Made by a program: the position numbers and the translations under genes
Shown: positions 31,377-37,222 of the stretch, piece by piece
How the letters are laid out: every line of letters begins with the position of its first letter
Numbering within the stretch: position 1 is the first letter of the stretch
Notes under the pieces: model-generated
The model's database searches: none
Seen by the model: only the letters and a program-made list of their open reading frames with translations
What the model was told of the DNA's origin: nothing
From: Aotearoamyces nothofagi
Taxonomy: Eukaryota; Ascomycota; Leotiomycetes; Leotiales; Tympanidaceae
Direction: 5' to 3'
Assembly: GCA_015345905.1 (NCBI GenBank)
Contig: JADDTR010000002.1
Coordinates: 1,302,001-1,366,000, forward strand
DNA: 64,000 nt

Positions 31377-33431
31377 ATGACGTCTTCTGTGTTCTTCAAG
31401 TTCAAATCTCAGAAGGAGCCCTCTAGAGTGGAATTCGATGGTACTGGTATCTCTGTATTCGAACTCAAACGTGATATCATCATCAAAAGTGGTCTAGGTG
31501 ATGGTACTGAATTCGATCTTGCTATATATAATGAGGATGGCAATGAAGGTAGGTCCTAGAGTGCTATCTCTTTTTCTTTCTCTTAAATTAACTAATGCTT
31601 CACAGAGTATGATGACGATACAGCAATCATCCCACGATCGACATCAATCATTGCACGCCGTTTACCGCCATTGAAAGCCGGAGCTGGACGCGCCGCTCGC
31701 TATATGTCTGGGAAGATGCCTGTTAATGCTAAGAATTCATCACGCAAAGAAGTGCCGATGGTAAAGTCAAACGTGAAGCAGACATCGGCCACGAATGGCA
31801 TTGCGAAGATGAACAGTGCGATGACTGAGGAAGAAAGAATGGCAGCGATGTTCCAAGCACAAAGCGAACAATGGTCCGCACAGCAGGATGAGATGGCTCA
31901 GTAAGTTTGCTCCAGACTTCGAACGTGTTGCATAGTATACATTAATCTAACTTAAAGCAGTCAGACACCGGTGTTCAGACCCGGTGGAAACAAGAAAGGC
32001 GGTCCCCCTCCAAACGTTCCCGACCACGAGCCTCCAACTGGATACATATGCTACCGCTGCGGAGAAAAGGGACATTGGATCCAGGTGTGCCCGACCAATG
32101 ATGATCCCACTTTTGACAACAAGCCACGCGTAAAACGTACCACTGGTATCCCTAGATCATTCCTCAAGACTGTGGAGAAACCCGTTGCTCTTACTAGTGA
32201 TGGTACAACAGATGATACAAAGGCTCCGTCTGGTGTAATGGTCAATGCCGAGGGAGAGTTTGTTGTCGCAGAACCAGATAGAGCTTCATGGGAAAAGTTT
32301 CAGGCAAAGACAAAGTCATCAGCTGACGCACAGAAGGCTGCTGCATCTGGTGATAAAGAATTGCAAGACAGGGGGCTACAATGTCCTATCGACAAGCGAA
32401 TGTTCATAGACCCAATGAAGACGCCATGTTGTGAGAAGACGTATTGCAATGATTGCATAACTAATGCTCTCATCGAGAGCGACTTCACATGCCCAGGTTG
32501 TCAGACAGATGAAGTCCTGATTGACAACCTTAAGTCTGATGAAGAGATGTCAGTAAAGATCAAGACGTACCTTGACGAAAAGGATGCTGCGAAGAAGGAG
32601 AAAGAGAGGTCTAAGAGTCCAAGTGTGAAAGCAGAAAACCCTGAACCTGAAGCCGTAACCAGCAAAGAGAAGACAAAGTCGCCCTCGCCCTCTTTATCGT
32701 CTAAATCGCCGATCAAGTCTCCTGCTAACCCTCCGGTGAAACCTGCTAGCCCAACCAGCAGGGCCGGAACCCCAGTAGTGAATGAAACCGATGTTCCCAT
32801 CGCACCCAAGAAGCGCCCTGCTGATGAACTTCTCGAGAACACTAGAATTCCAAAAGGCCCAAAGGCAATGCAACAACAGGAAGCCCAGAGACAAGCCAAA
32901 CTCCAGCAGCAAACTATGATGAATGGAATGAATGGAATGGGCGGATTCCCAAATATGCCATTTGACATGTCCGCAATGGGCATGAACGGGTATGGCATGG
33001 GCATGCCAAACATGAACATGTTGAACAACTATGGAATGGGTATGAGTATGCCGCCCATGATGGGAATGGGCAACGGCGGTATGATGAACCCTATGATGGG
33101 GATGAGTGGCTTCCCGAACATGAACATGAACATGAACATGAATATGAACGGCGGAGGGTTCTCGAATATGAACGGCATGGGTATGTACGGCAATGGCATG
33201 GGGTTTGGAGGAAACACAGCTGGCATGGCCATGGGCTCGAATAGTGCAGGAGTAGGAGCTGTGGTTAACGGAGCAACTGCCGCAGGTGGATTCCCAGATC
33301 AACAGAAGACCGTATTTGCAGCACCACTACAAAATGAAGAAGACAACGCCTACTTTCGAAAGCCTGTAAATCCTCACCGTCACCAAGGACGAGCACGAAG
33401 AGCGAGGCCGAGCGATTACAGAGAAGTATGA
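31377..33431 (+). CDS. MPE1: MPE1/RBBP6-type DWNN-RING protein of the cleavage and polyadenylation factor
   Basis: Three exons, 31377-31548, 31606-31900 and 31961-33431, give 645 residues. Donors are GTAGGT and GTAAGT; joins read NEDGNE-EYDDDT and MAH-QTPVFRPGG. Mpe1 is a core subunit of CPF needed for pre-mRNA 3' end processing, and an E3 ligase candidate. In order: the ubiquitin-like DWNN domain at 4-77 (SSVFFKFKSQKEPSRVEFDG); a CCHC zinc knuckle at 186-199 (CYRCGEKGHWIQVC); and a RING/U-box near 296-345 (CPIDKRMFIDP, then CCEKTYCNDC, FTCPGC). A Ser/Pro/Lys-rich linker precedes a methionine-, glycine- and asparagine-rich tail, and the C terminus is basic. Confidence 0.96.
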
Positions 33432-34142
33432 TCACCGGCTTCCTCTCCGCTTCACATTCACTCCATACTTTGTTCAACAACTTAGTATTTTGTGTCGGAC
33501 TCGAACCCATGGACAACATGCTTCCTTTCGTCATTGTATGGTACAGCTAGTATATATCCACGCAGCGTTGTGATGGAGTTTAGCATTGGGAATTGGGCGT
33601 TAATGGGCGTTTTGAGAAGACTTCTGGAAAGCACAGATTAGGGATTGTGACTGGCCTCTATGGGGGCCAGCATTGTGGACAAAGCGCAATAGTCTCTTCT
33701 AACACAACAAACTATAAATAGAGGTGGTATCAGCCTATACACGGTATAGTGCCATCTTATGTAACATAATTGAATCGATAAGCATTAAGCCAGTTTGCCT
33801 TTGTGAAATGTGCAGTGATCACTATCCCGTATACTAAAGTATCAAGGTACGTCTACAAAAGTGACAAAGTATAGTGTTGCATGCAAATAATTGGAATGTG
33901 ACACTTTCTAGGTACGCAGGTAGACTAGCCAAACACGGGTCAAACATAAATAGGATGATCGCTGTTAACTCGATGATTTGCATGCTATAACTATATATGA
34001 ACTAATGTATTGCCAAAACCCCATATCGAGAAATAAAAGAAATCAATAGTTTGCTCGGACGCCCGTGGTGCCGATTAATGAAGGCAATGGCGTAAGGTTC
34101 AAGACTCCATAATCCTTTTTCCCAGTAAATAACGCAACCATA
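33432..34142. other. Convergent intergenic region
   Basis: About 710 bp between the stops of MPE1 (+) and the antizyme gene (-), AT-rich, nothing else recognised. Confidence 0.45.
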
Positions 34143-35077
34143 TTAAAGTTCCATGCCCAAGAACAACCATTTTTTGCTCGTTACTCCTTTTTCCTTCGCC
34201 CACATATCCAGAGTTATCAGCTCGAAGCCAACCCATCGAAGGCTTTTGAGCAAACATCTGCTTTCTTCTGGTTCGACCGACCGATCAAGACAGACGACCA
34301 CTTGCGAGCAATTGAAAGAGCCTGCCAGCTCAATTAATGCCATAAGACTATTAAAGTTAGCAGTTACTACACGAAAGATCATGTGGGGAACATACCCTTT
34401 TTTAAGATCCCGTCCAACAACAGAAGAATCGAAGAAAGCAAAAAGGCACTTCTCGTCTCCTGTTCCTGTAACAAAGCCTCTAAAGCTGCAACCACCAGCG
34501 TAGTCCCAAACCTCAAACCACGAGTTTACTCGGTTGGCGTTTCGGTTGTCGAAATAATTGTACGAATCCACACTTTCGTCAGGAGGTGAATACGCGTTCG
34601 TACCCATGTCGATAGAGCCAATCGCAACTGAATCCCTCTCACCAAGGAATACGGTCTTCATGGTCTCGCAGAAGAGTCTCTCACACTCTTCCCGAATGGT
34701 GCACGCTGCCCCCTCTCTACGGTTCTTTCTCATACCATCTCTGTCGCGCTTCCTTGAGTTGGACTTGGGACTGAGCGCGAGCTCATTGGCGGAGGCCGGT
34801 ACCGCGAGAGGGGGACTTGACGGGGGGGATGGGAGTCCTGAGGAAGGGACCTCAGGAATACCACTGGGCCCCTATAGATAACAAGTTAGTTCGTATAGTA
34901 TGAAAGAGAAACCATTGAGAAAGACTTGCCGTCGGCCCCGGTAGTGGAGTAATGAAAGCCCTTCAGCATCGCCGAAGAGTCAACCACGTAGCAACTGGCG
35001 AGGACATTGGCTTGACGCGCGACGGCCTCGCCGTCACGATTACTACTACTAAAATTGATTGTTTTGCTGGGAGCCAT
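34143..35077 (-). CDS. OAZ1: Ornithine decarboxylase antizyme, decoded by +1 ribosomal frameshift
   Basis: Antizyme binds ornithine decarboxylase and sends it to the proteasome without ubiquitin, limiting polyamine synthesis. Exon 1 is 34930-35077; a 58-nt intron (34872-34929) with a GC donor (GCAAGT), ACTAAC branch and TAG acceptor follows; exon 2 is 34143-34871. Splicing gives a 55-codon first frame ending G-A-Q-W-Y-S then TGA at 34852-34854. Skipping the T of TGA gives EVPSSGLPSPP and 236 codons, for 291 residues. The antizyme domain is clear: VTANFNSLMALIELAGSF, VVVCLDRS and LLKSLRWVGFELITLD. W-Y-S before TCC-TGA is the layout known from animal and fungal antizymes. That polyamines stimulate the shift is family knowledge, not seen here. 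Confidence 0.93.
34836..34857 (-). promoter_or_regulatory. Antizyme +1 frameshift site with overlapping 8-bp inverted repeat
   Basis: On the minus strand TCCTGAGG (34857-34850) contains the shift codons TCC TGA. It is perfectly complementary to CCTCAGGA (34843-34836) across a 6-nt loop TCCCTT. The shift motif matches the UCC-UGA used by most antizymes. Whether the hairpin acts in recoding is unknown. Confidence 0.8.
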
Positions 35078-36319
35078 TGCTAATGGATAATGCCAGCGTT
35101 GTTACGTCGAAGATTGGATTGAGGGACGGGTTTGCCGAGAGTGTATTTTGTAGAGTCGTTGAAGAAGTGGCGGTAAAGTGTGAGAAGGTGGGGGTGGTTG
35201 TCTTTCGGAGAGCTGGGAGTTGAGTTGGAGCGTGATGCGTTGATAGGAAGGATTATTGGATTGTTAGAGATGAGTGAGAGATGGAGTTCAAAGCGAGCCG
35301 GTAATTGTTGGTGGTCAGTTCAGTTCTGGTAATCAATCACTTAAGTACAGGCTGCGAAAGTTCTGGATTGACTAACGCCGAAATTGGAAAGGGTGAGGGG
35401 TAAGCGAACGAGAGCCTCACGTGATCTCGCACGCCAGCCACGCCAATCAGCTCGGATGGTTTGACTCGAGAATGGGGACCAGCAAACGCCGCCCTGGACT
35501 TGGCAAATTGGCCAGCGTAAGGGACGGACGAGCACTGCACTCTCCAGCGGTCGTTCTATCCCATTCCAAGCTGCCTCCGGCAAGTTCGGGCCAGCATCCT
35601 TTGTTTTGACCGCGACGGGAGATGCTTTCAGCCTCTCATACTTGTGATTATGGCCTCTGCGAGCAAGGCAGCAACAGTGCCGGACTCGCGGTGGAACTGT
35701 AGCCGCAGCATAGCATAGAACCAAATGCAACTTCAGGATATACTGGCATACATACACGGCCCAGGTGCTTGTGTGCCTCCTTGCTTCGTATGCCACCTGT
35801 CAAATGCCCACTCGGCCATTCTGCAAGCATACTATCATGCTAACCTGCATCTTATCATCCCTATCGATTAGGCGATAAGCCCGGAACCCGGATGGATCAT
35901 GGGCTGTGAGCTGTGCGTGACCTCCACCCAGCTCGGAGTCGAGCGATCACCCACCAGCCGCGGGGACACCGCCGCACCATCAAACAAACAACACTGAAGG
36001 CGAGACAGCAGTAAACCACCATAGCTCATCACCGACGTAGTCTCCGCTCCTCTGACGCCAATACGAATACGCTGGTTCATTTCTACAGCATATAGTTCTA
36101 TGTAGGTCTCTGCTTGGAGGATTCTTCCGTTCGTGCATAGCATCATGAAAATGCACTGAGTGATGATCGGTTCTGCAAGCTTTACATCTTGCGCCACTGC
36201 ATATCCACACCCTCCAGCAACCCTGGCTTTTTATAGAGTCAACTCGACGGCTGTTTGCCGCGACCATTTCTAGATACTATTCCTTTTTGACTGTGCCTTA
36301 CAACTCGTTCGCATTCGAC
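35078..36319. promoter_or_regulatory. Divergent region antizyme / yippee-like gene
   Basis: About 1.24 kb with no supported gene. It contains the palindrome TCACGTGA at 35417-35424, about 340 bp upstream of the antizyme ATG; CACGTG is the classic basic helix-loop-helix site (Cbf1, SREBP types). Overlapping open frames at 35.3-36.2 kb on the minus strand lack family features. Confidence 0.45.
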
Positions 36320-37222
36320 ATGAGCGGCGTTCTCGAAGCATATAAAGCGTTGAAGGTGCCTTCCGAGGCCACCGTCTCGCGGCCGCCCTTCCCGACTTAC
36401 CTTCTCCCAAGCTTCTCCTTCCCATTGCCTAGGCACTTCAGACGGCGGCACTCATCCACGACCAGTGTCAACTCCTTGAATCGAAACTCTGCGATATTCT
36501 CTCTGGTCGCATCACCAACATCGTCTGCGAGCACAACGCCGAGTTCATCGCCGCCGCAAACGAGCTATTTTAGCCGGCGAATCTCTACATATACTACGTT
36601 CAGTGAAACTCTTGAAGAAGAAGAAGAACCTGAGCAGGAGGTGCCGCTCAAGCTTCAACGCACACAGCCCGACACTCTCAAGTGCTCCACATGTTCAACA
36701 GACATTGCGTTCGCAGATCAAATTGTCAGCAAAGGCTTTACTGGACGACATGGTCGGGCAATCCTGGTTTCCCCTCCCCCATTACGAGGTGCCTTGTCTA
36801 AAAGCCCTTCGAAACGAGGTGGTGGGAAGGACAAAGATCGAGACTTGATCAATACCCGGATCGGTCGCTCTGTCACCCGCCAGCTGGTTACTGGCACTCA
36901 TGTTGTGGCAGATCTAAGCTGTAGCATTTGTGGTACAGTTTTGGGATGGAAATATGTGGATGCTAAAGAGCAAGCACAAAAATACAAAATCGGAAAGTTT
37001 ATTTTGGAAACAAAGAGAGTTGTTAAAGGAAAGTGCTGGGAGGAGGTGGTGGATGGGCCCTTTGTGGAAGAGTGGAACGATACCCCGAAGACAGAAAATG
37101 GAGATGACAAGGAGACAGAGTTTGATTCGGAAGATGAAGACGAGTGTGAGGACTTGTTTGCTGGAGTTTGGGATCCAGATGTTGTCGCAAAGAGAAGGAC
37201 GAAGAAAGTGGGAGTGAAATAA
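36320..37222 (+). CDS. Yippee/Mis18-type zinc-binding domain protein
   Basis: Single exon, 300 residues. The N-terminal third is Ser/Thr/Pro-rich. The yippee-like domain (about 120-240) has two paired CxxC motifs expected to bind one zinc: CSTCSTDIAF at about 124 and CSICGTVLGWKYV at about 201. Between them are FTGRHGRA and the segment RQLVTGTHVVADLSC; the domain closes with YKIGKFILETKRVV. The C terminus is acidic, then basic. The fold is shared with cereblon and Mis18; no specific role is known for fungal yippee proteins. The ATG at 36320 is the first in frame; the frame upstream begins only at a TTG. Confidence 0.9.
   Translation: MSGVLEAYKALKVPSEATVSRPPFPTYLLPSFSFPLPRHFRRRHSSTTSVNSLNRNSAIFSLVASPTSSASTTPSSSPPQTSYFSRRISTYTTFSETLEEEEEPEQEVPLKLQRTQPDTLKCSTCSTDIAFADQIVSKGFTGRHGRAILVSPPPLRGALSKSPSKRGGGKDKDRDLINTRIGRSVTRQLVTGTHVVADLSCSICGTVLGWKYVDAKEQAQKYKIGKFILETKRVVKGKCWEEVVDGPFVEEWNDTPKTENGDDKETEFDSEDEDECEDLFAGVWDPDVVAKRRTKKVGVK

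What the first reader, a model, noticed from the sequence alone, without database searches (positions are those of the whole stretch)
34143..35077. Antizyme gene needs both a GC-AG intron and a +1 ribosomal frameshift
On the minus strand the only splice that yields the antizyme shift context (W-Y-S, TCC TGA) uses a GCAAGT donor at 34929 with an ACTAAC branch and TAG acceptor at 34872. The first frame then ends at TGA 34852-34854. Skipping one base opens 236 codons containing the antizyme domain (VVVCLDRS, LRWVGFELITLD). Antizyme frameshifting is established for animals and fungi. The pairing with a GC-AG intron just upstream of the shift site is the unusual part, and standard gene callers will mis-model this locus.
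Basis: partly seen in the sequence, partly recalled or inferred. Interest (0 to 1): 0.8.

Follow-up and report, generated by a model that had tools for sequence, protein, structure and literature searches.

The report
Fungal antizyme gene with programmed frameshift
This is an ordinary fungal antizyme gene, the polyamine-level brake that needs ribosomes to skip one base, and it very probably also carries one of the roughly 1% of introns that start with GC instead of GT; this is an uncommon combination, but not a new mechanism.

Summary
The observation largely holds: an antizyme gene lies on the minus strand at 35077-34143. A GCAAGT...ACTAAC...TAG intron (34929-34872) joins exon 1 in phase to TGG TAT TCC TGA; a +1 shift there opens the antizyme frame (PF02100, 148 bits). 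One PF02100 match was found in the genome, which also encodes ornithine decarboxylase.

Three corrections. (1) GC-AG is not "the only splice" giving WYS-TGA: 14 of 48 listed GT/GC-AG pairs do, and 10 of 48 give one continuous frame with no shift. GC-AG is the best-scoring donor and uses the first AG after the branch point. (3) It puts the ORF1 stop 456 nt before an exon junction, so unshifted transcripts may be NMD targets (inferred).

The shift site sits in an 8-bp hairpin of unknown function. No RNA data or fungal relatives were available. Fungal antizyme frameshifting is well known; GC-AG introns are about 1% of fungal introns. New member of a known kind, low-to-moderate interest.

The parts
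34930..35077 (-). Exon 1 (coding part) with ATG at 35077: most of ORF1 (49 codons plus 1 base)
   Evidence: in-frame TAA at 35104-35102 just upstream and no ATG in the 300 nt upstream
34872..34929 (-). Intron 1 (inferred), GC-AG, 58 nt: donor G|GCAAGT, branch ACTAAC (A at 34886), TAG acceptor 14 nt on
   Evidence: length and branch spacing lie within those of 29 strong-consensus GT introns of the same genome
34396..34871 (-). Exon 2: end of ORF1, shift site, start of ORF2
34852..34863 (-). Shift cassette TGG TAT TCC TGA (W-Y-S-stop); a +1 shift gives W-Y-S-E-V-P
   Evidence: UCC_UGA and the UGG two codons 5' of it match the described antizyme cassette (PMC5009743, passages)
34836..34857 (-). 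8-bp perfect hairpin TCCTGAGG-TCCCTT-CCTCAGGA that encloses the shift site (function unknown)
   Evidence: three stretches holding it: z -2.00, -3.72, -3.10; a fourth that begins 3' of the shift site: z -2.92; an 8-bp stem embracing TCCTGA in 93 of 20000 shuffles
34348..34395 (-).
   Evidence: removal raises PF02100 from 132.9 to 148.1 bits; donor score +7.75
34143..34347 (-). Exon 3: rest of the antizyme domain, stop TAA 34145-34143

Best explanation
It is the ornithine decarboxylase antizyme gene of a fungal genome, probably a filamentous ascomycete. The pre-mRNA loses two introns: first a GC-AG intron (34929-34872), then a 3n stop-free GT-AG intron (34395-34348). Ribosomes translate a 55-codon ORF1 ending W-Y-S-UGA. 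Some shift +1 at UCC-UGA and make a 275-residue antizyme that binds ODC; the rest terminate. More polyamine should mean more shifting and less ODC. Shown here: the gene, its frames, the cassette, the domain, one match in the genome, an ODC gene in the same genome. Inferred: both splices, the shift itself, polyamine control. The unshifted stop lies 456 nt before the second exon junction, so unshifted transcripts may also feed NMD (inferred).
For: PF02100 match 1.2e-43, 148.1 bits, full profile 1-114, on the spliced and shifted protein. One PF02100 match in 25.5 Mb and one ODC match, 3.7e-75. The TGG-N3-TCC-TGA cassette lies where ORF1 meets the antizyme frame in +1. The GC donor is the best of 13 donors. 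Among the 14 pairs that give WYS-TGA, three put Gly at codon -6; the other two have donors at -9.51 and -13.98 bits. Under GC-AG, codons -8 to -5 read A-D-G-A; by my reading of the review's table S. pombe has A-G-G-A. The 58-nt length and the 14 nt from branch A to acceptor lie within 29 introns of this genome (44-122 nt, 6-18 nt). UCC_UGA use agrees with the published majority of antizymes (PMC5009743), and the ORF arrangement with PMC2375905.
Against: No RNA-seq, footprint or peptide evidence. No orthologue found: one scan each of viral contigs and genome contigs gave 0 relatives; neither is a fungal collection. Ten of 48 splice pairs give a continuous frame, among them two with GT donors near the GC donor. 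In 264 kb of this genome GC donors (8) did not exceed the GA (12) and GG (5) controls under the same filter, so GC-AG splicing in this genome is not shown independently; the antizyme intron itself cannot pass that filter, because its exon 2 meets the UGA after 17 nt. Gly at -6 is not universal in the review's table (C. elegans and antizyme 3 lack it; the S. cerevisiae row is ambiguous).
Confidence: 0.86

Rival explanations
1. A GT-AG splice removes the need for frameshifting: GT at 34925 (GTCTTT) with the second acceptor CAG at 34864 (62 nt) gives one continuous frame of 290 codons (intron 2 not yet removed); or GT 34912 (GTTTCT) with TAG 34872 (41 nt) gives 297.
For: Both keep the frame open to the antizyme stop and use the canonical GT.
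Against: Donors score -3.24 and -2.42 bits against +2.05 for the GC donor. The first skips the nearest AG after the branch point. The second intron, 41 nt, is shorter than all 29 introns (44 or more; filter from 36) and than the 42-nt minimum in PMC5677156. The TGG-N3-TCC-TGA cassette at the right place would then be a coincidence.
Confidence: 0.07
2. WYS-TGA is reached by another splice, such as GT 34912 with CAG 34864 (49 nt): still a frameshifted antizyme, but with a GT-AG intron and a different ORF1 tail (S-F-S-M-W-Y-S).
For: It gives the same shift site with a canonical GT, and 49 nt is a normal length.
Against: Weak donor (-2.42 bits), skips the first AG after the branch point, and puts Phe in place of Gly at codon -6.
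Confidence: 0.05
3. Pseudogene or sequencing error: the frame change is damage, not recoding.
For: Two frames are needed for one protein.
Against: The break lies at the known antizyme cassette, the domain matches the full profile, and it is the one copy found in a genome with an ODC gene.
Confidence: 0.02

Closest known systems
Fungal and animal ornithine decarboxylase antizymes with +1 frameshifting (S. pombe, mammalian OAZ1; OAF cluster F2 with Hypocrea virens, PMC2375905)
   Same: Short ORF1 ending UCC_UGA, UGG two codons upstream of the shift codon, longer ORF2 in +1 with the ODC_AZ domain, a single copy as reported for fungi
   Different: ORF1 appears to be completed by a GC-AG intron whose acceptor is 17 nt before the stop; a hairpin encloses the shift site; whether relatives share either is unknown
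GC-AG introns of fungi
   Same: GCAAGT donor with strong +3 to +6 match, CTAAC branch, TAG acceptor; 1.009% of fungal introns (PMC7072748)
   Different: Nothing beyond its position just upstream of a recoding site
Drosophila oda (antizyme) mRNA as NMD target (PMC1756896, passages)
   Same: The unshifted stop is early in the mRNA; here it also lies 456 nt before an inferred exon junction
   Different: NMD of this fungal mRNA is untested; EJC-linked NMD of mRNAs with introns near the stop or in the 3' UTR is stated for Neurospora (PMC7746235, passages)

Membership tests
ODC antizyme (PF02100) | ODC_AZ domain above the curated cut-off | tested here: met
   148.1 bits against a cut-off of 24.2, profile 1-114
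ODC antizyme (PF02100) | Smaller upstream ORF and larger downstream ORF in +1 phase (criterion from PMC2375905) | tested here: met
   ORF1 55 codons, ORF2 220 codons in +1 under the GC-AG model; rests on the inferred splices
ODC antizyme (PF02100) | UCC_UGA shift site with UGG two codons 5' (criterion from PMC5009743; UCC_UGA is the majority form, not universal) | tested here: met
   TGG TAT TCC TGA at 34863-34852
ODC antizyme (PF02100) | Binds and inactivates ODC; shift rises with polyamines | not testable with these tools
   Only the presence of an ODC gene could be shown
GC-AG U2-type intron | GC donor with strong consensus at +3 to +6, branch point and YAG acceptor at normal spacing | tested here: met
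   GCAAGT, ACTAAC, TAG, 58 nt, 14 nt spacing
GC-AG U2-type intron | Spliced in RNA | not testable with these tools
   No RNA-seq held
Rfam antizyme frameshift element (that Rfam holds one is recalled) | Match to such a family at the shift site | tested here: not met
   Over 33900-35600 the one match at E up to 5 was a snoRNA model on the other strand, far below its cut-off; 0 matches at gathering score in the window. A missing match does not exclude other stimulators
EJC-dependent NMD target | Stop codon well upstream of an exon junction | tested here: met
   456 nt, resting on the inferred intron 2; Mago found in the genome; decay itself not testable

The most novel reading that the evidence does not exclude
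Donor choice and frameshifting form two layers of one switch. The GC donor (34929) and the GT four bases downstream (34925) compete: GC-AG makes the frameshift-dependent mRNA, GT-AG to the second acceptor (34864) makes a mRNA that gives antizyme without any shift. Splicing could then bypass the polyamine sensor. The hairpin enclosing the shift site and the 3n stop-free intron 2 would be further control points.
Probability: 0.05. Interest if true: 0.8.

Novelty: new member of a known kind. Interest (0 to 1): 0.27.

Why it matters
It is a clean case where two uncommon steps, a GC-AG splice and a +1 frameshift, must both be modelled to recover a core polyamine regulator, so automatic annotation is likely to get it wrong. 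If the intron and hairpin prove conserved across related fungi, a link between splicing and recoding would become testable; as it stands I found no sign of such a link.

Tried and rejected
Comparative test: the search for related loci with the 275-aa protein in viral contigs and genome contigs (one scan each; a second genome-contig scan and seven viral ones were left unused) gave no relative (3 and 11 pattern matches, none confirmed). The PDB sequence search gave one chance-level hit (E 0.46).

Genome-wide GC-AG rate: three ab initio passes over 264 kb (the window plus 20 stretches of 10 kb, about 1% of the genome) were too noisy to use. The strict pass gave 29 GT, 8 GC, 12 GA and 5 GG candidates, some of the latter sharing an acceptor with a GT intron, so GC is not above the controls and no own-genome GC-AG rate can be given. 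The 29 GT introns were selected by a GTRNGT donor, length 36-130 and branch distance 5-24, so they inform length and spacing only within those limits and say nothing of donor frequencies. The donor matrix used is that of Fusarium (PMC5677156, passages); that text gives the -1 C value twice (1 and 17%) and I used 17%.

Hairpin as a classical stimulator: not adopted, because stem and shift site overlap and a ribosome sitting on UCC-UGA would have melted it (inference). Rfam gave nothing relevant (one snoRNA match on the other strand, 18.3 bits against a cut-off of 50).

Literature: Ivanov and Atkins 2007 (antizyme survey) and Ivanov 2000 are not held; what they say of filamentous fungi I could not read. 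A search for antizyme with GC-AG gave 1 paper, whose passages treat the two in separate sections. Passages of PMC9604110, PMC3777964 and PMC9656687 bore on nothing decisive.

Full report
What is there. On the minus strand, ATG 35077 opens a frame that runs into a 58-nt stretch with GCAAGT at 34929, ACTAAC at 34890-34885 and TAG ending at 34872. Removing it puts exon 1 in phase with TGG TAT TCC TGA (34863-34852). Skipping the T of TGA opens the antizyme frame to TAA 34145-34143.

A missed intron. GTATGT...GCTAAC...TAG at 34395-34348 is 48 nt, a multiple of three and without a stop, so it is invisible to a frame check. Without it the PF02100 match rises from 132.9 to 148.1 bits, and the stretch matched to the 114-position profile falls from 128 to 112 residues. 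Such introns are not rare in fungi: 9.2% of GT-AG introns in PMC7072748 (passages and tables). The product is then 275 aa.

How good is the GC-AG call? Of the 48 GT/GC-AG pairs in 35017-34852, 14 give WYS-TGA, 10 give a continuous frame and 24 end elsewhere. The GC model wins on quality. With the Fusarium donor frequencies (PMC5677156, passages), including the 1% for C at +2, GCAAGT scores +2.05 bits; GTTTCT (34912) scores -2.42 and GTCTTT (34925) -3.24; the other ten donors are lower. It uses the first AG after the branch point, 14 nt on. Its length and spacing lie within those of 29 strong-consensus introns of the same genome (44-122 nt; branch A to acceptor 6-18 nt), whereas the 41-nt rival is shorter than all of them. 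Three of the 14 WYS pairs place Gly at codon -6 (counting the serine codon as -1); the other two have donors at -9.51 and -13.98 bits.

That glycine. In the review table (PMC5009743, passages) I read Gly at -6 in S. pombe, Coprinopsis, Drosophila and the listed vertebrate antizymes 1 and 2 and the fish forms, but not in C. elegans (Val) or mammalian antizyme 3 (Ser); the S. cerevisiae row is ambiguous. The table's columns are uneven, and I settled the numbering with the human sequence recalled from memory. S. pombe reads A-G-G-A at -8 to -5, this gene A-D-G-A. The glycine codon is the one split by the intron.

Limits of the own-genome test. In 264 kb the strict filter gave 8 GC candidates against 12 GA and 5 GG controls, so it shows no GC-AG excess. 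The antizyme intron cannot enter that count, because its exon 2 meets the UGA after 17 nt. For rarity I rely on the published 1.009% of fungal introns.

How likely is the cassette by chance? TGGNNNTCCTGA occurs 3 times in the window (0.85 expected; 4 of 100 shuffles had as many), and TGGTAYTCCTGA 6 times in 25.5 Mb against 2 for the reversed pattern. The weight comes from its position and phase at the antizyme frame, not from rarity of the letters. One of the three window matches (34830-34841, plus strand) is the other arm of the inverted repeat described below.

Setting. One antizyme match was found in the genome, with an ODC gene (255.9 bits; one stop inside the matched stretch, where an intron is likely) and Mago, a core exon-junction protein, matched in three pieces.

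Mechanism. Standard antizyme autoregulation is the best explanation: termination competes with a +1 shift at UCC-UGA, and polyamines favour the shift. Under the inferred splices the unshifted stop lies 456 nt before the exon 2-exon 3 junction. Drosophila oda is an NMD target (its level rose in Upf2 mutants, not significantly in Smg1 mutants; PMC1756896, passages) and Neurospora is stated to have EJC-linked NMD (PMC7746235, passages), so frameshifting may also spare the mRNA. This is inference.

Hairpin. TCCTGAGG-TCCCTT-CCTCAGGA encloses the shift site, with pairing of TGG and CCA outside a 3x3 internal loop. The three stretches that hold it folded with z -2.00 (92 nt), -3.72 (63 nt) and -3.10 (33 nt); a fourth, which begins 3' of the shift site and keeps only four of its pairs, gave -2.92. 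An 8-bp stem embracing TCCTGA arose in 93 of 20000 shuffles of the downstream 60 nt. It was noticed after the fact, and a ribosome at the shift site would have melted it, so I give it no role without conservation data.

Novelty. +1 frameshifting of fungal antizymes is established (PMC5009743, passages; PMC2375905, first two of four parts of the text, which lists a Hypocrea virens member and says that standard pipelines cannot recognise such shift sites; PMC3982577, passages). GC-AG introns are a minor normal class. I found no evidence that the two depend on each other. In the held library a search for antizyme with GC-AG found one paper, which treats them separately, but most papers, including the main 2007 survey, are not held, so I claim no absence from print.

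Noticed in passing
34395-34348: Second intron, multiple of three and stop-free; retention would add 16 residues inside the antizyme domain.
   Followed up: yes
34857-34836: Perfect 8-bp inverted repeat enclosing the shift site, extended by TGG/CCA outside a 3x3 internal loop.
   Followed up: partly
L022 (G000:C6:296802-297440): ODC gene of the same genome; the antizyme's expected target. Its frame is broken where an intron is likely.
   Followed up: partly
31971-33431: Plus-strand ORF convergent with the antizyme gene, with zinc-knuckle-like and RING-like cysteine spacing and a Met/Asn/Gly-rich tail; resembles Mpe1 (recalled, not searched). Two introns called just upstream.
   Followed up: no
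36287-37222: Plus-strand ORF with CxxC pairs that resembles a Yippee-type domain (recalled, not searched).
   Followed up: no
G000:C5:362733, C19:406512, C1:568471: Three U1 snRNA candidates at 46-52 bits, below the Rfam cut-off of 69.5.
   Followed up: no
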